IMG/VR virus record: IMGVR_UViG_3300018059_000026
Location: 1 to 37,764 of that record
DNA: 37,764 bases
Direction: 5' to 3' (one strand)
Source of the DNA: a virus
Shown here piece by piece: positions 4,643 to 21,133 of the stretch. A model generated the notes under the pieces. It worked only from the letters and a program-made list of their open reading frames with translations, made no database searches and was not told where the DNA came from. The position numbers and the translations under genes were made by a program. How positions within the stretch are numbered: the stretch's first letter is position 1; each line of letters starts with the position of its first letter.

Positions 4643-5191
4643 ATGGGAGCCTTCGAGTGGATCTCGTCGATCATCGAGTGGTTCGGGAAGTTCTTCCCAC
4701 GTTGGATCATTCTCGATACGACCGAAGGCGCGGTCAAATTCGTCCGCGGGTCGAAACCCATCGCGCTCCGGGCAGGGATTCATTGGTTCTGGCCGATCAC
4801 GACCAAAGTCACGCAGTACCCAACCGCGTTTCAGGCGGATCGGCTGCCGACCCAGACTATTACCACGACCGATGACGTCGTGATCGTTGTCGGGTCAATG
4901 ATCTCGTACGCCGTAGACGACATTCTGCCGCTCGTGTCTACGACACATTCGGCCATGACGACGGTCAACAACCTCGCGATGTCTGCCGTTCATCACATCT
5001 GTTGCCGGATGTCCTGGGAGGAACTCAGAGGCGAACAACGCCGGGGTACCTTGGATACGAAGCTCCGAAACGCCGCGCAAAAAAGTTTATCGAAATACGG
5101 GGTCGCGGTTGAAGAACTCGTGCTGGTGGATATGGCGAAAGCACGGGTGCTGAAACTGATGCAAAGCACGAGTACCGAGGAGAACGCATGA
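4643..5191 (+). CDS. SPFH / band-7 domain protein (stomatin-prohibitin-HflK/C type)
   Basis: 182 residues. The N-terminus is a hydrophobic amphipathic hairpin (residues 1-25) that would sit on the membrane. It is followed by the band-7 pattern: GAVKFVRGSKP, LRAGIHWFWP, LPTQTITTTDDVVIVV, ISYAV, the helix after EELRGEQRRG, and the closing YGVAVEELVLVDM. Family members form membrane rings; host HflK/HflC restrain the FtsH protease. The phage version lacks the long C-terminal coiled coil, so it is short for the family. A role in membrane remodelling, FtsH control or exclusion is inference. It overlaps the next gene by ATGA. Confidence 0.75.
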   Translation: MGAFEWISSIIEWFGKFFPRWIILDTTEGAVKFVRGSKPIALRAGIHWFWPITTKVTQYPTAFQADRLPTQTITTTDDVVIVVGSMISYAVDDILPLVSTTHSAMTTVNNLAMSAVHHICCRMSWEELRGEQRRGTLDTKLRNAAQKSLSKYGVAVEELVLVDMAKARVLKLMQSTSTEENA

Positions 5192-5577
5192 CCAAAACAG
5201 GTGAAGGTGAATACGACGCGACACCGGGGAGCATGATATTCCGTCCAGGGAAATGTACACCGATCAGAGCTTCAACCCTCCCGACTGACGCAGCCGAACG
5301 GAAGAAGTACCCAGTTGCGACGGGGGTACTGGAATATTTTCCTGACGCGATTGTTGCCGTCGCTCGTGTCTCGTACGAAGGCAACGAACAACACAATCCA
5401 GGCGAACCGCTGCACTGGGCGCGGGGTAAATCAATGGATCAGGCCGACACGATGATTCGACATTTCCTGCAACGAGGCACGCTCGACACAGACGGACAGC
5501 GACACTCCGCGAAGATGGTCTGGCGGGCGCTCGCGATTTTGCAACTCGAAATTGAGGCTGAAAAGGAAACCGCATGA
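5188..5577 (+). CDS. dATP/dGTP diphosphohydrolase-like protein (dGTP_diPhyd_N / DUF5664 type)
   Basis: 129 residues. The core ARVSYEGNEQHNPGEPLHW then ARGKSMDQADTMIRH, DTDGQRHSAK and VWRALAILQLEIE matches the pattern I associate with the N-terminal dATP/dGTP diphosphohydrolase domain (formerly DUF5664), found in phage proteins such as MazZ. Family knowledge: these all-alpha enzymes cut dNTP to dNMP and pyrophosphate. Conserved acidic residues and H106 could hold metal. It is coupled by ATGA overlaps to the SPFH gene before and the deoxyribosyltransferase-like gene after. Exact substrate not determinable here. Confidence 0.7.
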   Translation: MTKTGEGEYDATPGSMIFRPGKCTPIRASTLPTDAAERKKYPVATGVLEYFPDAIVAVARVSYEGNEQHNPGEPLHWARGKSMDQADTMIRHFLQRGTLDTDGQRHSAKMVWRALAILQLEIEAEKETA

Positions 5578-5954
5578 TTATCTACTTAGCCGCTCCCTGG
5601 GTGTGTCGTGCCGGCGCGCGAGAGATCCGCGATTTACTTCAACAACTTCCTGGTATCCGAGTACACGCGCGTTGGCTGGACGTTGACGAGACACGCACGA
5701 CACAAACACAGGAAGCGCGAAACGACTTGGACGACATTGACGCGGCAGACGTGTTGGTCGTGCTGAACTTAGAAAAGTCCGAAGGGAAAGCCTTCGAGCA
5801 AGGGTACGCGTACTGTCGCAGGATTCCAGTCGTCATCGTCGGCGAACCGCGGTTGAACGTCTTTCAACATCTGCCGGACGTCATCGTCGTTGAGGACGTC
5901 TCGGCGGCGATTGACTGGCTCATGGACTTCGTACCTCGAAAGGTCGCCACATGA
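5574..5954 (+). CDS. nucleoside 2-deoxyribosyltransferase-like protein
   Basis: 126 residues. It begins with the Rossmann-like IYLAAPW strand, has WLDVDE and the ARNDLDDIDAADVLVVL stretch, and carries the catalytic-type GKAFEQGYA motif with E75 as the expected nucleophile. VVIVGEPRLNVFQHLP follows, typical of the family. Relatives either swap bases on 2'-deoxyribosides or hydrolyse deoxynucleoside monophosphates (DNPH1-like). Either activity would pair with the upstream diphosphohydrolase-like protein, which makes dNMPs. Reaction direction is inferred. Confidence 0.75.
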   Translation: MIIYLAAPWVCRAGAREIRDLLQQLPGIRVHARWLDVDETRTTQTQEARNDLDDIDAADVLVVLNLEKSEGKAFEQGYAYCRRIPVVIVGEPRLNVFQHLPDVIVVEDVSAAIDWLMDFVPRKVAT

Positions 5955-6891: not shown

Positions 6892-8139
6892 ATGCTCCAT
6901 CTCTACCGTCGTCATCGATCCGCCTGCCCGCATACCTCTGCCACGTACCGCCGTTGTCAGTGTCCGATCTACGTCCGGGGTACCCTGGGCGGCGCGGACG
7001 TCAACCGCATGTCGATGGATCAGACGTCCTGGGACGCGGCCAGCAAGCTCGTCAATGAGTGGACAGTTGCAGGGAGCTTCGGCGCGAGGATGGACGCGGG
7101 TCAGAAAACGGTGCAGGACGCGGTCAGCGCCTTTACAGACGACGCGACGGCGCGGGGACTCACTGCGGCTACCCTGAAGAAATATCGCTTCCTGACGAGG
7201 CGTCTGGTGCCCTGGTGCACGGACAACGGGTACGCGTACTTGCCGGCGTTGACCTTGGACGCCTTGACCAGCTTCCGGGGTACCTGGATCGGCGGGGGAC
7301 TCACGAAAGCGAAGCAACAAGAACGGCTCCGGGCGTTCTTCAGCTGGTGCGTTGCGCGGGAGTGGATCCGGAAGAATCCAGCTGAACATCTGTCGGCCTT
7401 CAACGTCGATCGGGTACCAACGCTCCCCTTCACCGCGGACGAAATGGCCCGGATACTCACCGCCTGTGAGAAGTACCCGGCCCGGAACCGCGTCCGCATG
7501 ACCGCGTTCGTGCTGTTGCTCCGTTGGTCCGGGCTCCGGATCGGCGACGCGGTCACGATCACCACGGACCGCATGACCAACGGAAAGGTGTTCCTGCACA
7601 CACAGAAGACGGGAACGAACGTCTGGGTACCGGTACCGCCGACTGTCACGGACGCACTGGCGAAGGTGACACTTGACGGCGATCGGTACTTCTGGTCCGG
7701 GAAGGGGAAACCAACGTCCGCGTCCTCCGGTTGGCAGAGAGCGTTACGTGTCCTGTTCGCGCTTGCGGACGTTCCGACAGGACATGCTCACCGGTTCCGG
7801 GACACCTTCGCGGTTGAATTGTTGTTGCAGGGAGTCGAACTGGCGGACGTGTCGAAGCTCCTGGGGCACGCATCGATCAAGGTGACGGAGCGCCATTATT
7901 CACCGTGGGTTCATGCTCGTCAATCGCGGCTGGAAGCGGCGGTACAGAAAACCTGGACGCTCACTACGCCGCCTTCCGGGGTTCCTGCACAATCTCTCCC
8001 GACCGCAAGCGGCGAATCACAAACCGCGGAGGGAGAGACGCCGGTACCTCCTGCGTCATCTTCCGGTACACCCGCGTTGCCACGGATTCCGGAATCCGTA
8101 GTACCCGACCCGATCGAATCACTCCCGGTTCCTGCCTGA
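6892..8139 (+). CDS. int: tyrosine site-specific recombinase (integrase)
   Basis: 415 residues. Catalytic residues are visible: R216 in SGLRIGD, K239 in TQKTG, H300 and R303 in HAHRFRDTFA, H326 in LLGHASIKVT and the nucleophile Y336 in ERHYSPWV. A SAM-like core-binding domain spans about 75-165. The N-terminus carries a C..H....C.CP cluster (residues 12-25), a pattern common in some integrase subfamilies. Residues about 355-415 are an unusual Pro/Ser/Thr-rich tail beyond the catalytic domain, encoded where an antisense HTH gene overlaps. It would integrate the phage at the tRNA-fMet-like attP just upstream. Confidence 0.92.
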   Translation: MLHLYRRHRSACPHTSATYRRCQCPIYVRGTLGGADVNRMSMDQTSWDAASKLVNEWTVAGSFGARMDAGQKTVQDAVSAFTDDATARGLTAATLKKYRFLTRRLVPWCTDNGYAYLPALTLDALTSFRGTWIGGGLTKAKQQERLRAFFSWCVAREWIRKNPAEHLSAFNVDRVPTLPFTADEMARILTACEKYPARNRVRMTAFVLLLRWSGLRIGDAVTITTDRMTNGKVFLHTQKTGTNVWVPVPPTVTDALAKVTLDGDRYFWSGKGKPTSASSGWQRALRVLFALADVPTGHAHRFRDTFAVELLLQGVELADVSKLLGHASIKVTERHYSPWVHARQSRLEAAVQKTWTLTTPPSGVPAQSLPTASGESQTAEGETPVPPASSSGTPALPRIPESVVPDPIESLPVPA

Positions 8140-8218: not shown

Positions 8219-8660
8219 CGCTGTCTTCTCCGTACGTCTTCACCTTCTCGCCGGCCTTTGTGATCAGCACGTACGCCTTTTTCGGTTTCTTCCTCGTGGC
8301 GTCCGCGAGCATTTGCAGACTGCCGCCCAACTTCACGAACTCCAACTTGTCGAACTTACTACTTTCCCCTTTGACGATCGTCAGCTTGAACCCGTTGACG
8401 TCGGTCGTCTTGATGTCCCAGGCTTCGAGTTCGGCCTTGATCTTTGCTTCCTCGATCTTCTGCTGAGCGGCCAATAGGTCCGCTTCAAACTTCAGTTCCG
8501 CCCAGGTGGACAGGATCGCTTCGACACGTTGCTGGACTTCCGGACTAAGGGTCTGAATCATTTCCTGCGTTTGGGTCAATTCCTGTTTCAACGGACACTC
8601 CTTCGGGGTCTGGCAGAACCCGTTATAGTAAAGGACGTAACGGCAATGCTCACAGGTCAC
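8211..8660 (-). CDS. hypothetical Cys-cluster / coiled-coil protein, 149 aa
   Basis: The N-terminus has C3, C6, C16 and C22 (CEHC, then CQTPKEC), a possible zinc site. A long helix follows at about 25-80 (ELTQTQEMIQ to AKIKAELEAW) and then a Lys-rich beta domain ending in an acidic tail. It is coupled to the polymerase gene by ATGA and lies at the distal end of the replication operon. No family recognised. Confidence 0.65.
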   Translation of the reverse strand: MTCEHCRYVLYYNGFCQTPKECPLKQELTQTQEMIQTLSPEVQQRVEAILSTWAELKFEADLLAAQQKIEEAKIKAELEAWDIKTTDVNGFKLTIVKGESSKFDKLEFVKLGGSLQMLADATRKKPKKAYVLITKAGEKVKTYGEDSDD

Positions 8661-11410
8661 GCGGCGACGGCTTCCCGGATCGCGTGCATGTTCCCCCAGT
8701 CGGTCCCGTAGTCACCCGACGTCTCGATCGGGACGGAGAGATCACTGGCCGGTACCTGTGTCATCGCGTACACCATCTCCACGTCGAGATCCTTCAGGAT
8801 TCGTTCCTCGCACTCCATCAGGAGATCGTCGTGAATCTGAATCAACGGCTCGACTTTATCCCCGCGTTTCCACCGGGGAAGGAGGATGTTTCGGTACACG
8901 TACTCTTCGGCTCGCTTCATGATCGACTGCGCGCCCGCCTGAATCGGTGTCGCGAACGCGAACCGCTCCGCTTCCGATCGTACCGCTTCGTCATAGCTGC
9001 GAATCCCGCCGATGTAGCGACGTCGACCACGAAGGTCTGTCACGAACCCGTACCGCCGCGCTTCCGCGATCTTCCCCTGTTGGTACTCGGGTACCCGCTT
9101 GTACAACTGCATGGTTTCCGTGAGCCAGCGTTGCGCATCGTCTTCGTTGACATCGACCCCGTTCTTCCGCAGTTCCAGACACAAACCGATATTCGTCATG
9201 CCCATCGGGATCCCGAAATTTACCGCTTTGGCGGGGAGCCGGTGTTTGCTTTTGTCCTGATCTTTCGGGGCGACGCCGAAGATCCTTTGGGCCAGGGTCG
9301 CGTGCAGATCCACGCCCGATCGGAATGCGTGGAGGAGGATGGGATCTTGCGAAAGGTGAGCGAGCACCCGCAACTCAATCTGACTAAGATCCCACGAGGC
9401 AAGAACCGCACCGTCGCCACTGATAAACCCTTCTCGAAACCGGGTCGCAAATTTCCCATGCTTGGGCAGCGCGAGCAGGTTCGGATCACTAGCTGCAAGC
9501 CGACCAGTAACGACGCGAGTAAGCCGGAACGTGGCATGGATGCGTCCGTCGAAGGGGTAGCGGTGGACAAAGTCCGGGATCTGGTCGACGAACGTATGTT
9601 TGAGTTTGTAGACTTCACGGTACTCCCTTAGATCCGCGATGTGTCGGCGGATCGCTCCATCCAGTCGGCTATCCTTCTCAAGAGCTTCGAGCACCTTGTC
9701 ATTGGTCGAGGGATCGCCGCCCGGTGTGCGTTTGAGGGAATCGATTCCGTACCGCTCGAACAAGAGTTCCCCGACGTGGTAGGTGGAATTGGGGTTGAAG
9801 GCCCAGGCGTCGTCGTCGGAGTACCCCGCGTCGCCAGCCAGTAATTTCTCAGCAATTCGAGTTCGTATCTCGACAAGTTCGCTGCCCAAGTCCTCAGAAA
9901 GTCGTGCGAAGTGGGCGAGATCGGGACGGATTCCGATCTGCTGCATCCGGTCAATGAGCGGAATGGTTGCGAGATCGGCGCGGTAGACGGGGTAAAGATC
10001 CGCAGCTTCAAGTCGTTCAACCAGTTGGGGCTTGAGTCGTAACGTGCCGTCAGCGTCTCTTCCGGCATACGAAATAGCTCGAACCAGTGGGACATGATCC
10101 AGAGTAGCCGCCCAGATTGCGCCGAATTTAGGCCCAGCTTCGACGTGTCGATCGAGTACCTGATCTCCCCAGAGCTTGCGGGAATCTTTCGAGCGAAGGC
10201 ACCGCTCGACCGCCTTAAACAAATCTGATTTTGGGAGTTTCGGGTGAACGCGTAGCTTACGACCAGGGACGGTTCGCCCTTTCTTGTCGATGTACGGGGT
10301 TGTAGTGAGCCTGACAAATTCGAGTCGGCAGTGTTCTTCGTGTTCGGCATTCTCAGTATCCCAGGAAGCGAGTAACCAGTCTTGCGCGAGCCGGAAATTG
10401 GCATCGCCCATCACGTCGTCGTAGTGCTCCATCTTCATGTTGCAATGACGGGCACAGAGCGGCTTCAGTCCTTGCGGTTCCAGTTGCAGGACGTAGGCCA
10501 TTTGCATCGTGTCGTCAAACGTCAGGTACCGGGTGTCGATCCCGATCGCCCGGAAGATGTTCAGTTCGTGGAGCGCGGAATGAAAGACGAAGGTGTACAG
10601 AGGTACCCCGCCGTCCTCAACCGCCAGGAGATCGAGGTTGACCCATTCGACGAATCGATCGATCAGATGCTTGTACTTGTTCCGGATGATGAACGCATGA
10701 CCGGCGCGGGTCGTGAGTTGGACAGACCAGACGTTGTGCGCCCAACCTTCCGTATCGCACGAGAACTCGATTGAGGTACCCTCGCCGAGCATGATCTGGT
10801 CAACCGTGTCGACATCAAGTACCTCCTGGTAGACCGGCTCCGGGATCGGGTCGTCGAATAGAATCCGGGGTGCGATGCTTCCGTCGAGTACCCCTTCCAG
10901 CTGCGTGAAGTCGTACGTCACCGCTGCGGCGAGTTCAGGGGACCGGAATCCCGCGGCCGGGTTGTAGATCGGGAAAATGATCACCCGTTCGGGATTCGCG
11001 AATAGCGAACGCCGGGGCGAATCGATCGGCAGATGCCAGGGGATCCCGTGGCAGCTTTCCATGTCGATGTCGCCGAGAAAATATTGCGTAATGTGCCGCC
11101 CCAGCGCGACGATGTATTTCGGCCGCACCGCCCGGAGTTCCGTGATCAGTGCAGGTTCGTCACGATCAAAATCAGCTTGTCCATATTCCGCGTCCGGTCC
11201 GCACCAGTCCTTGATCCAGACGGTGAGGTAACAATCTCCACGAGCCGGAAGCCGCACACCATCGAGGTAACGATCGATCTCGTTGGTGCGCCGGCCTTTG
11301 GCACTAAACGGACGGCCAGTACTCGCGTCATCTTTGCTCGCCCATTCTCCGCAGACGAAAAAATCACAAGGTACCGGCCCTTCGCCGTTGATGCGCCGGC
11401 CGACACTCAC
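8657..11410 (-). CDS. family A DNA polymerase with N-terminal UDG-like domain (SPO1 type)
   Basis: 917 residues, GTG start overlapping the previous stop (GTGA). Residues about 1-175 resemble family 4 uracil-DNA glycosylase (GEW..KDD...GRPF, PKYIVALGRHITQYFLG, FPIYNPAAGFRSP), as in phage SPO1 polymerase. The usual FeS cysteines are not evident, and the HP motif reads NP (N150), so glycosylase activity is doubtful. A DEDD 3'-5' exonuclease follows: DTE at 219-221 and YAGRDAD near 448-454, while the exo II region reads HSALHELNIF without the usual Asp. Polymerase motifs are A (SWDLSQIELR, D674), B (R724, K728, F732) and C (IHDD, D861). The O-helix Tyr position (E. coli Pol I Y766) is Met736. It is the presumed phage replicase. 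Confidence 0.9.
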   Translation of the reverse strand: MSVGRRINGEGPVPCDFFVCGEWASKDDASTGRPFSAKGRRTNEIDRYLDGVRLPARGDCYLTVWIKDWCGPDAEYGQADFDRDEPALITELRAVRPKYIVALGRHITQYFLGDIDMESCHGIPWHLPIDSPRRSLFANPERVIIFPIYNPAAGFRSPELAAAVTYDFTQLEGVLDGSIAPRILFDDPIPEPVYQEVLDVDTVDQIMLGEGTSIEFSCDTEGWAHNVWSVQLTTRAGHAFIIRNKYKHLIDRFVEWVNLDLLAVEDGGVPLYTFVFHSALHELNIFRAIGIDTRYLTFDDTMQMAYVLQLEPQGLKPLCARHCNMKMEHYDDVMGDANFRLAQDWLLASWDTENAEHEEHCRLEFVRLTTTPYIDKKGRTVPGRKLRVHPKLPKSDLFKAVERCLRSKDSRKLWGDQVLDRHVEAGPKFGAIWAATLDHVPLVRAISYAGRDADGTLRLKPQLVERLEAADLYPVYRADLATIPLIDRMQQIGIRPDLAHFARLSEDLGSELVEIRTRIAEKLLAGDAGYSDDDAWAFNPNSTYHVGELLFERYGIDSLKRTPGGDPSTNDKVLEALEKDSRLDGAIRRHIADLREYREVYKLKHTFVDQIPDFVHRYPFDGRIHATFRLTRVVTGRLAASDPNLLALPKHGKFATRFREGFISGDGAVLASWDLSQIELRVLAHLSQDPILLHAFRSGVDLHATLAQRIFGVAPKDQDKSKHRLPAKAVNFGIPMGMTNIGLCLELRKNGVDVNEDDAQRWLTETMQLYKRVPEYQQGKIAEARRYGFVTDLRGRRRYIGGIRSYDEAVRSEAERFAFATPIQAGAQSIMKRAEEYVYRNILLPRWKRGDKVEPLIQIHDDLLMECEERILKDLDVEMVYAMTQVPASDLSVPIETSGDYGTDWGNMHAIREAVAA

Positions 11411-12126
11411 GACAGTACCTCCCGAATGTGTGTCGCGATCACTTTCCCGACGCCAGGTACCTTCATCAGTTCTTTCATGCTCGCGTTGTGGAGCCGCCCC
11501 CAGGTACCGAAGTGATCTTCGATCGCTCGCCCTTTGTCCCAGCCGACGCCGTCGATCCCCGACAGCATCCGCAACATTTCGGAGGGTTCAGACATCATCA
11601 CGCGGTCCGGAGGGGGAAGGTAGATCGCTTGGTGTGATCGATGTTCCTGCAATTCCTTCGCCGTCCACCAGCGGTACAAGACGGAGAGAAACCGGATCGT
11701 GTCGACTCGGGTTGGTGAGTGCCAGTACTTGAACCCGAACGCGGTGACTTGGGACAGGATCCAGCTTTCAAGATCGTTGAGCATCACACGACGAGTACCG
11801 ACCATCACCTGACGCCAACCCTTCGCCATGTGTTCCATGACGCCGGAATCGTCCGCGCGCCAGATCCCCTCCGTCAGCAACCAAATCTGGTTGTAGGTGG
11901 ACTGGAGTCCGATCGCTTGATGACCGGCGAACCGTTGGGAGTACATCGACGAGACAAGATCGCGTGTCTCTTTCAATTCGATCCCGATGAACACGTCCGC
12001 GCCTTCGAGTCCCTTCCCGATGAAGGCGAAGTCTCCGAAGTCCAGGTGTGTGAGTTCCGCAGGTACCCCGTACCGGCAGAGCGGACCAAGCAAGTCCTTT
12101 GAGCCGACACGTTCGTCAACGAGCAT
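11407..12126 (-). CDS. ERCC4/XPF-type nuclease with C-terminal helix-hairpin-helix
   Basis: 239 residues from the ATG at 12126, which overlaps the upstream TGA (TGATG); a longer in-frame start at 12219 would run through the preceding gene. The nuclease core has DERVGS, HLDFGDFAF (G31-D32), FIGIELKETRDLVSS (E50, K52, matching the ERK-type site) and QSTYNQIWLLTEG. The C-terminus has tandem HhH elements (LSGIDGVGWDKGRAI and LMKVPGVGKVIATHI). Family members cut branched DNA. Here it would act in replication or recombination beside the polymerase, to which it is coupled by overlap. Confidence 0.85.
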   Translation of the reverse strand: MLVDERVGSKDLLGPLCRYGVPAELTHLDFGDFAFIGKGLEGADVFIGIELKETRDLVSSMYSQRFAGHQAIGLQSTYNQIWLLTEGIWRADDSGVMEHMAKGWRQVMVGTRRVMLNDLESWILSQVTAFGFKYWHSPTRVDTIRFLSVLYRWWTAKELQEHRSHQAIYLPPPDRVMMSEPSEMLRMLSGIDGVGWDKGRAIEDHFGTWGRLHNASMKELMKVPGVGKVIATHIREVLS

Positions 12127-12296
12127 CACTTCGAGTACCCATTCGCCGCGTTGAAGCCTTTGACTGTGAAAGTCGGCGCGGACGGTTGACGGACCATGAT
12201 GTTTTCGCAGAAGAAACACGGCTGACTATCCCGTTCATTCATAGTGACAATCCGAGTCTGAGCCGCGCCGCACGCCGGACAGATGTAGGCGTACAT
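12126..12296 (-). CDS. FmdB-like zinc-ribbon protein, 56 aa
   Basis: It begins MYAYICPACG and has a second CFFC knuckle followed by IMVRQPSAPTFTVKGF, the layout of FmdB-family regulatory zinc ribbons. The start at 12296 is chosen because it gives the family N-terminus and lies 5 bases after the previous stop. Its TGA overlaps the nuclease ATG. Its role is unknown; homologues are common small phage and bacterial proteins. Confidence 0.75.
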   Translation of the reverse strand: MYAYICPACGAAQTRIVTMNERDSQPCFFCENIMVRQPSAPTFTVKGFNAANGYSK

Positions 12297-12751: not shown

Positions 12752-13462
12752 TCACTGAAGTACCGGCTCGAAGATGACCACGCACGACGGGAATGGTGCG
12801 CTATCGAGTAAGTCCTTGTCTGGGACATCCTGCAAGATGCGCTCCACGGCCATCCGGGGGAGTCCGGTCACTGACACCATTGACTTGTACCATTCAGCCT
12901 TGACGGTGTCAGTGAACGCAATCCCGCCTTCAGGAAGGGGTACCTTCGCCGCTTCGTACTGATCCTTGATCCACTGCCGAAGCTCCACTGTCACCGTTAG
13001 CTCGAACTCCAACCGGCCAGGAAGGAAGCGACAACGGGTACCTGGACGCCAGTGACCGTCTCTGTGGATCGAGCGAATATCGTGGATCTCGTCTTCGATG
13101 GTTGGCGGGTATTCGTCCTTGTCCCAGATGTACCCCATCCACCATTTCGTATCGCTGCGCACCGGGAGCAACAGCACCACCGTCGCACCCTTGTCCGCTT
13201 CCTCGCGCGCTTTCTTGATGAACTTGCCGGCGACGGAGTACGGCGGGTTCAGCCAAATCGTGAATCCGGTACCTCCCCAGTCTTCCGTCAACGCGTCTTC
13301 CGCGAGCGTTGAACCCGGACCCATCCACAGATCGCACTTGGCGTTCTCTTTACTCGCTGCCGCGTCGAGATCGAAATGAAATTCCGCGTTCAGCGCGTCG
13401 AAGGTACCCTGGGGCGTCCCGCGTTCATCACCCGCGCTCGCAAAAAATACTGGGGCGTTCAT
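12752..13462 (-). CDS. phage DNA N6-adenine methyltransferase (Dam family)
   Basis: 236 residues. It shows DERGTPQGTFDALNAEFHFDL then DAAA, the N-terminal signature of the phage Dam/N6-adenine methyltransferase family, and the catalytic motif IWLNPPYS (NPPY at 72-75). ATVVLLLPVRSDTKWW and RCRFLPGRLEF complete the pattern. It would transfer a methyl group from SAM to adenine N6. No partner restriction enzyme is visible, so self-protection or regulation is more likely than a restriction system. ATGA overlap with the upstream gene. Confidence 0.88.
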   Translation of the reverse strand: MNAPVFFASAGDERGTPQGTFDALNAEFHFDLDAAASKENAKCDLWMGPGSTLAEDALTEDWGGTGFTIWLNPPYSVAGKFIKKAREEADKGATVVLLLPVRSDTKWWMGYIWDKDEYPPTIEDEIHDIRSIHRDGHWRPGTRCRFLPGRLEFELTVTVELRQWIKDQYEAAKVPLPEGGIAFTDTVKAEWYKSMVSVTGLPRMAVERILQDVPDKDLLDSAPFPSCVVIFEPVLQ

Positions 13463-19461: not shown

Positions 19462-19496
19462 GAACTTACGCGATCCGCGTCAGAACTTACGCAATC
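19462..19496. repeat. pair of 14-bp direct repeats, 21-bp period
   Basis: GAACTTACGCGATC (19462-19475) and GAACTTACGCAATC (19483-19496) differ by one base and are 21 bp apart, two helical turns. They overlap the helicase stop codon and lie beside operator copy 3, so a second DNA-binding protein may use them. Confidence 0.5.
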
Positions 19497-21133
19497 AATT
19501 CGAGCGGTGCCGGGATGTGTTCGACGTAGAGGATCGCGTCCTTGAACCAGCGCGGGGCGTGTTTCCCGTACCGCTTCAGGAACCAGTCGGCGAAATGGTC
19601 ATCGACGATGAAGGTTTCCGCCCAGTCGTCAGGCCCGCGCACCGGCCGGCCGCACGCTTGAACCAACTTCTGCATCCCCAGGTACCCGCTGTAATCCTTG
19701 TCAAGCTCGTGACGGATCGACATGATCGGGCCGCTCATATCCGGCTGGGGTACCTTCGCGATGATCTGGAACCGGCATTGGTCATCAGGAAAATCGTACC
19801 CGGTGACGACGGACGGGGACACCAGTACCCATCCTTCCCCTGCGTGCGCTTTGAACCACTGAATCTGTTCCCGTGTGTTGCCGGCATCGTGGATAATGAA
19901 CCGGTCCCGGTACTCGGACAGGGCCATCAGATCCTTCATGCGGGCGTAGCTGACGGTGTGAATGATCCCGTTCCACTTCGCTTCGACCCGCGGGCCGACG
20001 ATGCGATCGATCCGCTGCAACCAGAGGGATTTTGTGCTCTCGTGCATGTGACGATCGACCCGGACACTGGGCCATGTGTTGATCGAAATGACCGGGCGCT
20101 GGCTGACCGGGAACCGGGACGGGCATTCCCAGAACATCGCGTCTTCCTTGGCAACGCCCAGGAGTGCCAACGTTTTCGGCGTCATGGTCGCCGACATCAG
20201 GAGGACGTGAGGTACCCCGCGGAACAGGTGACTTTCCGCGTAGGCACTGACCCGCATTGGGGCGAATCGTGCCTGAACTGGGTTGAGATCGAGAATCCAA
20301 TCATGGACCGCGATCCCAGATAGCCGATCGAGCAATCCCTTGATTCGTTTCAGTCTCTTCGTGTCCTTCACCCCTTCCGCGGTATCCGGTGGATGAAGTG
20401 CCCTGACTTCCAGCTTTGACGCTAATGGTCCTTTCTGTTGCGTCGCCCAGTCCTTCCACACTTGCAGGTTCGTGTCCTTCAGCAGTTTCGACCCGATGTA
20501 TTTCGCGTCCTCGCTGGTCACTTCAATCGTAAGGAACGCTTCGAGTTCTTTGTCAGCGTCGTGTGCTTCGTCCAGAATGAGGAGATCGAAGACACCCAAC
20601 CCTTCGGCGAAGGCTTCACTGGCGAAATACATCGCGTAGTTGGTCGAGACCAGACTAGCCCGCCGGGCATCCCACACGGATCCGTAGTACGCACAATCCG
20701 GCCGGATCCCTGCCTTTTCCCGAATCGGCGCGAAGTCGCATCGGACTCCCGAATGACACGGACCTTCATCGCACCCGACGACGTACCGGGCGCGGCGATA
20801 ACGATCAAGGTGTCCCCCAGGCTCGATCGCGTGGCACGGATAATTTCTCTGACCGCGTAAGTCAGTGAGGCCAAGTGATCGAAAGTCTGCGGCCGACTGA
20901 TCTTGGAGTCCTTTGGTACTCGTAAGGTAAAGTGCACGTCGAACCTCCGGATGAAGGAGCGCAACTGTGATTCCGATCAAGGTTTTCCCGGACCCTGTCG
21001 GAGCCGGCAGCGCGGAGAATCGTTTACGATTGTTGATGACGCGGTCGATCGCAATGATCTGATCGTCGTAGAAGCGGGTAAATTTTTCAGGGAAGCCGAG
21101 TTCGATCGGTGTCGGGAGCGCGTTGACTTTCAC
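19487..21133 (-). CDS. XPD/DinG-like superfamily 2 helicase
   Basis: 548 residues, GTG start overlapping the previous TGA. Motif I is APTGSGKT (K50), motif II LLILDEAHD (188-191), motif III LMSATMT, and motif VI QACGRPVRGPDDW. Between I and II lie C100, C121, C126, C132 and C147, a spacing compatible with the FeS cluster of XPD/DinG helicases. It is predicted to unwind DNA with ATP, 5'-3' if family-like, as the replication or repair helicase. No separate replicative DnaB-type helicase is seen in the window. Confidence 0.88.
   Translation of the reverse strand: MKVNALPTPIELGFPEKFTRFYDDQIIAIDRVINNRKRFSALPAPTGSGKTLIGITVALLHPEVRRALYLTSTKGLQDQSAADFRSLGLTDLRGQRNYPCHAIEPGGHLDRYRRARYVVGCDEGPCHSGVRCDFAPIREKAGIRPDCAYYGSVWDARRASLVSTNYAMYFASEAFAEGLGVFDLLILDEAHDADKELEAFLTIEVTSEDAKYIGSKLLKDTNLQVWKDWATQQKGPLASKLEVRALHPPDTAEGVKDTKRLKRIKGLLDRLSGIAVHDWILDLNPVQARFAPMRVSAYAESHLFRGVPHVLLMSATMTPKTLALLGVAKEDAMFWECPSRFPVSQRPVISINTWPSVRVDRHMHESTKSLWLQRIDRIVGPRVEAKWNGIIHTVSYARMKDLMALSEYRDRFIIHDAGNTREQIQWFKAHAGEGWVLVSPSVVTGYDFPDDQCRFQIIAKVPQPDMSGPIMSIRHELDKDYSGYLGMQKLVQACGRPVRGPDDWAETFIVDDHFADWFLKRYGKHAPRWFKDAILYVEHIPAPLELIA

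What the first reader, a model, noticed from the sequence alone, without database searches (positions are those of the whole stretch)
8657..11410. UDG-like/exonuclease/polymerase fusion with altered key residues
The polymerase has the SPO1-type architecture, an N-terminal family 4 UDG-like domain fused to a family A polymerase. The UDG part lacks visible FeS cysteines and has NP in place of HP, so it may be a binding module rather than an enzyme. The exo II region lacks the normal Asp, and the O-helix Tyr (Pol I Y766) is Met736, a position tied to nucleotide selection. Together this hints at adaptation to an unusual template or dNTP.
Basis: partly seen in the sequence, partly recalled or inferred. 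Interest (0 to 1): 0.58.

Follow-up and report, generated by a model that had tools for sequence, protein, structure and literature searches.

The report
Phage DNA polymerase missing its tyrosine
A phage carries a DNA polymerase fused to a worn-out repair-enzyme domain and lacks a nucleotide-checking tyrosine that almost all such enzymes keep; its sister enzymes sit beside a gene for an unusual DNA base, but this phage shows no such gene, so what it copies is still open.

Summary
ORF 8657-11410 (-, 917 aa) is an SPO1-type fusion: a family 4 UDG-like domain, a DEDDy exonuclease and a family A polymerase (AlphaFold mean pLDDT 90; residues 189-908 match Klenow at Z 37). Met736 sits exactly at E. 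coli Tyr766. Exo II has Glu for Asp424. The UDG part has lost its iron-sulphur cysteines, GExPG loop, active-site Asn and His (NP for HP).

Met766 is fixed in a clade of 8 distinct polymerases. UDG decay and the exo II Glu are younger and narrower, so the changes are not one adaptation. Background at 766: viral Tyr 87 of 98 hits; host PolA Tyr 80 of 80.

The sister group has Thr or Phe at 766 and a PurZ gene nearby: a third DpoZ/PurZ lineage beside the two in print. The window's clade has no PurZ, ThyA-family or dUTPase gene (0 of 9 records) and lacks the Arg759 found in 26 of 27 PurZ-flanked polymerases.

So "altered key residues" is confirmed; "adapted to an unusual dNTP" is plausible by kinship but not supported by gene content. 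Most likely: an ordinary-base phage replicase with a retuned nucleotide checkpoint and a non-catalytic UDG-fold domain.

The parts
8657..11410 (-). UDG-like / 3'-5' exonuclease / family A polymerase fusion, 917 aa
10853..11410 (-). UDG-like domain, about residues 1-186; active-site motifs lost (GEWAS, Val64, Asn150)
   Evidence: Pfam UDG, PDB 4zbx/1ui0 sequence matches, motif table
10565..10567 (-). Glu282 codon, exo II position of E. coli Asp424
9203..9205 (-). Met736 codon, O-helix position of E. coli Tyr766
11407..12219 (-). ERCC4 + helix-hairpin-helix nuclease gene, directly upstream and overlapping; conserved beside the polymerase in relatives
12752..13462 (-). Dam-type adenine methyltransferase
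   Evidence: Pfam PF05869
14521..15300 (-). AAA_24-like ATPase of the replication module (below Pfam cut-off)
19487..21133 (-). DNA helicase of the same strand block
5188..5577 (+). PF18909 (DUF5664, dATP/dGTP diphosphohydrolase N-terminal) protein
5574..5954 (+). NDT-family (nucleoside 2-deoxyribosyltransferase) protein, overlapping the previous gene

Best explanation
This is the replicative DNA polymerase of a tailed phage that encodes an integrase, and it copies DNA of ordinary bases. Shown by sequence and model: the SPO1-type layout; intact polymerase catalytic residues; a DEDDy exonuclease with Asp-to-Glu at exo II; a UDG-like domain whose active-site motifs are gone; and a lineage-wide Tyr766-to-Met change just after helix O, with the partner Glu710 kept. 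Inferred: the UDG fold no longer excises uracil and serves as a structural or DNA-holding domain. The exonuclease is weakened but probably not dead. Methionine removes the Tyr766-Glu710 hydrogen bond and the aromatic stack that blocks the insertion site in the open state, which shifts nucleotide selection and mismatch or lesion tolerance. The change is one of several independent losses of this Tyr in phage polymerases; in the sister lineage the loss goes with PurZ, here it does not.
For: Architecture and catalytic residues. Met766 in 8 of 8 distinct clade members, clade support 100/98. UDG decay and exo II Glu confined to parts of the clade. No PurZ in 9 of 9 Met-clade records by PF00709 or by a sister-lineage profile that finds true PurZ at E down to 1.8e-241; no ThyA family, no dUTPase. 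Ala759 (Glu in L029), not Arg. Role of Tyr766 with Glu710: PMC4882331 passages.
Against: The site is the one shared DpoZ signature, and the sister lineage has PurZ. The window has PF18909 and NDT-family genes, families used by PurZ0 phages for purine pools. The record is a fragment, so a missing gene may lie outside it. No biochemistry.
Confidence: 0.6

Rival explanations
1. Met766 is a DpoZ-like adaptation. The phage uses 2-aminoadenine or another purine analogue made without PurZ: the DUF5664 protein cuts dATP/dGTP to monophosphates, the NDT-family enzyme swaps the base (a DmtZ-like route), and the polymerase favours the product.
For: The same site is changed in both known DpoZ clades and in the PurZ-bearing sister lineage (Thr 8 of 9, Phe 1 of 9 in the tree). 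DUF5664 and NDT-family genes adjoin in the window; PMC12884076 (passages) shows DmtZ, an NDT-family enzyme, making dZMP.
Against: No PurZ in 9 of 9 records. PF18909 in 4 of 9, NDT in 1 of 9, NT5C in 5 of 9, none of the three in the deepest pair G008 and G010 (G010 is only 9 kb). Ala759 instead of Arg. PF18909 relatives occur in three PF00709-less phages. The window NDT protein has no BLASTP match to the Korra DmtZ-DutZ protein beyond a chance piece.
Confidence: 0.17
2. Met766 makes the enzyme tolerant of damaged or mispaired template, so the phage polymerase also does translesion synthesis; the exo II Glu further lowers proofreading.
For: Y766S in Klenow favours lesion bypass at the cost of fidelity (PMC3121766 passages); pol gamma Y955C lowers fidelity and raises dATP incorporation opposite 8-oxoG (PMC12220841 passages).
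Against: Those are small or polar substitutions; Met may fill the space. Exo II keeps Asp in the rest of the Met clade, so low proofreading is not a clade trait.
Confidence: 0.15
3. Met766 is a neutral historical change, compensated within the conserved GIPMG segment, with no functional consequence.
For: Tyr is not invariant in viruses: 11 of 98 hits in an O-helix-unbiased sample are not Tyr.
Against: Met and the surrounding NFGIPMG stay invariant in 8 of 8 rows that fall to 36% identity, which suggests constraint.
Confidence: 0.05
4. The UDG-like domain is still a uracil sensor that binds rather than cuts, pausing the polymerase at template uracil.
For: The fold match is significant, and UDG motifs stay intact in L022, L027 and L029.
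Against: In the window the aligned GExPG, Asn and His positions are all changed, so the pocket expected to hold uracil is gone.
Confidence: 0.08

Closest known systems
SPO1-type polymerases (Bacillus phage SPO1L1, Exiguobacterium phage vB_EalM-132)
   Same: UDG-exonuclease-family A layout; EalM-132 also has Glu at exo II
   Different: Both have Tyr766 and lie outside the 18-row clade of the window
DpoZ polymerases of PurZ phages (phiVC8-like Vibrio phage H3; Wayne-like Arthrobacter phage Korra)
   Same: Family A phage polymerases with the helix-O Tyr replaced (Phe there, Met here)
   Different: Window scores 70.8 and 46 bits against DpoZ cut-offs of 500 and 350, has no PurZ, has Ala759, and is UDG-fused
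UDG-fused, PurZ-linked polymerases found here (L179-L184, L026, L028, L127, L189)
   Same: Same architecture (some split in two ORFs), ERCC4 gene beside it where checked (L026, L028, L127); sister side of the tree
   Different: Thr or Phe at 766, Arg759, PurZ nearby; the window has Met, Ala and no PurZ
Vaccinia D4 UDG as processivity factor
   Same: Precedent for a UDG fold used in replication beside a polymerase (search listing; otherwise recalled)
   Different: D4 is a separate, active family 1 enzyme held through a linker protein (recalled)

Membership tests
Family A DNA polymerase | Motif A Asp, motif B Arg/Lys, motif C His-Asp, Glu710 | tested here: met
   D705, E710, R754, K758, H881, D882 present; DNA_pol_A E 5.5e-83
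Family A DNA polymerase | Helix-O Tyr766, called universal in the literature | tested here: not met
   Met736. It is typical rather than defining: 11 of 98 viral hits lack it
DEDDy 3'-5' exonuclease | Asp, Glu, Asp, Asp and Tyr in exo I-III | tested here: inconclusive
   Exo I and III intact; exo II Asp is Glu282
SPO1-type UDG-PolA fusion | N-terminal family 4 UDG domain fused to exo and family A polymerase | tested here: met
Active family 4 uracil-DNA glycosylase | Four FeS cysteines and the GExPG, Asn and HP motifs | tested here: not met
   All absent or changed in the window; UDG_fam4 38.9 bits, cut-off 125.3
DpoZ | Match to curated DpoZ models | tested here: not met
   70.8 of 500 and 46 of 350 bits; controls Vibrio H3 919.6 and Korra 1196.4
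DpoZ | PurZ in the same genome | tested here: not met
   None in the 37.7-kb record nor in the other 8 Met-clade records; records may be fragments
DpoZ | Helix-O Tyr replaced | tested here: met
   Met instead of Phe
DpoZ | Preference for dZTP over dATP | not testable with these tools
   Needs biochemistry

The most novel reading that the evidence does not exclude
The window's polymerase and its PurZ-bearing sisters descend from one UDG-fused replicase line that repeatedly moved to non-standard purines: the sisters through PurZ (a third DpoZ lineage, Thr/Phe766 with Arg759), the Met766 clade through a PurZ-free pool route (DUF5664 with an NDT-family or 5'-nucleotidase gene), so the window phage's DNA carries a modified purine.
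Probability: 0.17. Interest if true: 0.85.

Novelty: new variant of a known kind. Interest (0 to 1): 0.6.

Why it matters
The literature treats this tyrosine as universal in family A and its loss as a fidelity lesion; here is a whole phage polymerase clade that lives with Met. It gives a natural test of what Tyr766 is for. The comparison also uncovered a third polymerase/PurZ pairing (UDG-fused, mostly Thr766, Arg759), which lets one ask which residues make a polymerase prefer 2-aminoadenine, with a close PurZ-less clade as control.

Tried and rejected
SPO1-like link to hydroxymethyluracil: ThyA family in 0 of 16 records, so not pursued. dUTPase: only in G012 (L034), 1 of 16. PF18909 as a mark of Z-DNA: rejected, because three phages with relatives of the window protein (Sphaerotilus R1, Tunturi_3, phiL7) have no PF00709 gene (the phiL7 match is below cut-off). 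Independent-pairs test of PurZ against residue 766: only 2-3 independent pairs, no power. The Fisher tests (766 not Tyr 20 of 27 against 11 of 98, p 4.9e-10; 759 Arg 26 of 27 against 5 of 98, p 8.7e-21) count related sequences and are not independent evidence. The structure searches listed only polymerase chains and covered residues 184-915; the UDG domain was not folded and searched alone, so its identity rests on sequence matches. Paper searches listed no paper whose shown text reports Met at this site or a UDG-fused DpoZ; the library is open-access only. That the window might carry PurZ was tested with a sister-lineage profile and failed.

Limits: Met rows were partly found with patterns holding NFGIPM; the other pattern (the exonuclease DDTM motif, not helix O) fits all eight in the alignment. 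From the best 80 of 359 loci were kept; 53 had no family A polymerase scored in the flank and were dropped. Of the remaining 27, Ser in PurZ was read inside 23, for L177 at the other contig end, and was not verified for L180, L188 and L189. In one search nine of eleven further PurZ-flanked polymerases were not extracted by my filter and are missing from the tree. L129 (partial) was left out of the trees; L025 (same best identity and span as L023; not aligned) and L188 (near-identical to L189 by eye) were not used as rows. Searches scanned 141 ORFs of six Met-clade genomes and the window, mainly round the polymerase, not all ORFs.

Full report
What is there. The ORF at 8657-11410 on the minus strand encodes 917 aa with a GTG start that overlaps the stop of an ERCC4/helix-hairpin-helix nuclease gene. 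Pfam finds a UDG domain, a 3'-5' exonuclease domain and a family A polymerase domain. The window is a 37,764-base virus record. Its closest relative is IMG/VR contig 3300036766_000708 (52,227 bases), with the polymerase at 82% identity and the gene order circularly permuted with respect to the window. So perhaps three quarters of the genome, including the polymerase-to-helicase block, is in view.

The residues. Against Klenow, the helix-O segment KAVNFGIPMGMT aligns with KAINFGLIYGMS without gaps, placing Met736 on Tyr766; two multiple alignments agree. In the predicted model (mean pLDDT 90.0, pTM 0.87) helix O is residues 720-733 in full numbering and Met736 lies just after it. The model from residue 189 on matches Klenow with Z 37.4, rmsd 2.4 over 537 residues. 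The other catalytic residues checked are standard. In exo II Asp424 is Glu282. In the UDG part three active-site motifs are changed and the FeS cysteines are absent (the motif names are recalled family 4 knowledge, the alignment is from the call).

Are the changes one package? No. In the tree (column 766 removed) eight distinct polymerases with Met form a clade (100/98). Within it exo II Glu is found only in the window and L001; the other six keep Asp. The UDG motifs GExPG, Asn and His are intact in L022, L027 and L029 and lost in the window, L001, L021 and L023; L024 is altered in part. FeS-type cysteines are missing in the Met clade but present in the outgroup fusions L031, L035 and L036. 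The likely order is FeS loss, then Met766, then UDG active-site decay, then exo II Glu (inferred from the tree). Glu at exo II also occurs in L035 and in SPO1-like EalM132, both with Tyr766.

How unusual is Met766? In 80 bacterial PolA loci it is Tyr in 80. In viral contigs picked by motif A, not by helix O, 98 hits in 96 of 120 loci give Tyr 87, Phe 8, Met 1, Asn 1, Leu 1; the one Met (L286) has an unlike helix. PMC4882331 and PMC12220841 (passages) call the Tyr universally conserved; PMC3121766 (passages) cites Y766S as opening the active site at a cost in fidelity.

The sister lineage. A search of 16 polymerase-bearing records for the adenylosuccinate synthetase family rang in exactly four, G007, G009, G014 and G015, the four whose polymerase has Thr at 766. 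In G014 the gene lies directly upstream of the ERCC4 gene and polymerase. It carries Ser where PurA has Asp13 in all four, the mark of phage PurZ according to PMC12884076 (section 24). Extending from these PurZ proteins gave 80 loci. Among 27 with a family A polymerase in the flank, residue 766 is Phe in 11, Thr in 9 and Tyr in 7, and residue 759 is Arg in 26. Nine UDG-fused or split polymerases with PurZ form a clade (93/97, not starred) that groups with the Tyr-bearing, PurZ-less L030 (91/74); this group is sister to the Met clade, and the whole has 100/98. Tyr is therefore probably ancestral and Met and Thr arose separately. Their PurZ proteins form a clade of their own (10 rows, 100/99), beside the two in print. 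PMC8599892 (passages) reports that the only mutation shared by the two known DpoZ clades is at the same helix-O Tyr, and PMC12884076 (passages) recognises two DpoZ groups. The lineage found here is a third, and NCBIfam's DpoZ_1 model does not claim it (77.7-130.3 bits in four tested, cut-off 500; controls 919.6, and 1196.4 on DpoZ_2).

Does that make the window a Z phage? The evidence leans against it. PurZ is absent from 9 of 9 Met-clade records by PF00709 and by a profile of the sister PurZ (positive controls down to E 1.8e-241). One of them, G005, has a 127-bp terminal repeat and is probably complete. The Met clade keeps Ala759 (Glu in L029) where PurZ-flanked polymerases have Arg; the phiVC8-like DpoZ have Gln there, so Arg is not obligatory. 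Galactica and L214 have PurZ but keep Tyr766, so a change at 766 is not required either. ThyA-family and dUTPase genes are absent too. In favour: the window has a PF18909 gene overlapped by an NDT-family gene, families that PurZ0 phages use to steer purine pools. But PF18909 occurs in 4 of 9 Met records, NDT in 1 of 9, NT5C in 5 of 9, and none of the three in G008 and G010, the deepest pair; and PF18909 relatives of the window occur in phages without PF00709.

Mechanism. In the open state Tyr766 stacks on the template base and blocks the insertion site; on closing it pairs with Glu710 (PMC4882331). Met can fill space but cannot make the bond or the aromatic stack. I expect a shifted open/closed balance and altered discrimination, with the polymerase otherwise canonical. 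The UDG fold, stripped of its uracil pocket, is most likely a structural or DNA-holding module. These steps are inference; only the sequence and model facts are shown.

Verdict. Observation confirmed; interpretation partly supported. The change is real and lineage-wide, at a site tied to an unusual dNTP in relatives, but no unusual-dNTP pathway is demonstrated in the window's own clade.

Noticed in passing
L179, L180, L181, L182, L184, L026, L028, L127, L189: A third PurZ/DpoZ-type lineage: UDG-fused (or split) family A polymerase with Thr or Phe at 766, Arg at 759 and a PurZ gene nearby.
   Followed up: partly
L026:1933-4334, L028:5960-8427, L144:1117-3572, L189:2027-4785: In these relatives the polymerase is split into two overlapping ORFs, UDG plus part of the exonuclease and the rest with the polymerase; in L026 and L028 the second ORF is in the -1 frame. 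Split enzyme or frameshift, unresolved.
   Followed up: partly
polymerases of L173-L252: Arg directly after K758 (E. coli Ala759) marks 26 of 27 PurZ-flanked family A polymerases against 5 of 98 viral background hits.
   Followed up: partly
L168 (Streptomyces phage Galactica), L214: PurZ phages whose polymerase keeps Tyr766 but has Arg759: the 766 change is not required.
   Followed up: no
window 5188-5954: PF18909 (DUF5664) and NDT-family genes overlapping by four bases, far from the replication block; the closest phage relatives of the first include Sphaerotilus R1 and Tunturiibacter phage Tunturi_3.
   Followed up: partly
window 6892-8139: Tyrosine integrase; with the Tunturi_3 match it hints at an acidobacterial host (inference, not tested).
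   Followed up: no
window 4643-5191: Band 7/SPFH-domain protein (E 4.3e-17), unusual in a phage.
   Followed up: no
L286: The only Met at the 766 column in the viral background sample, in an unlike helix O that may be misaligned.
   Followed up: no
PDB 9qhs chain A: A 1,142-residue 'putative DNA-directed DNA polymerase I' matched by the L022 UDG domain at its N-terminus: perhaps a solved UDG-fused polymerase.
   Followed up: no
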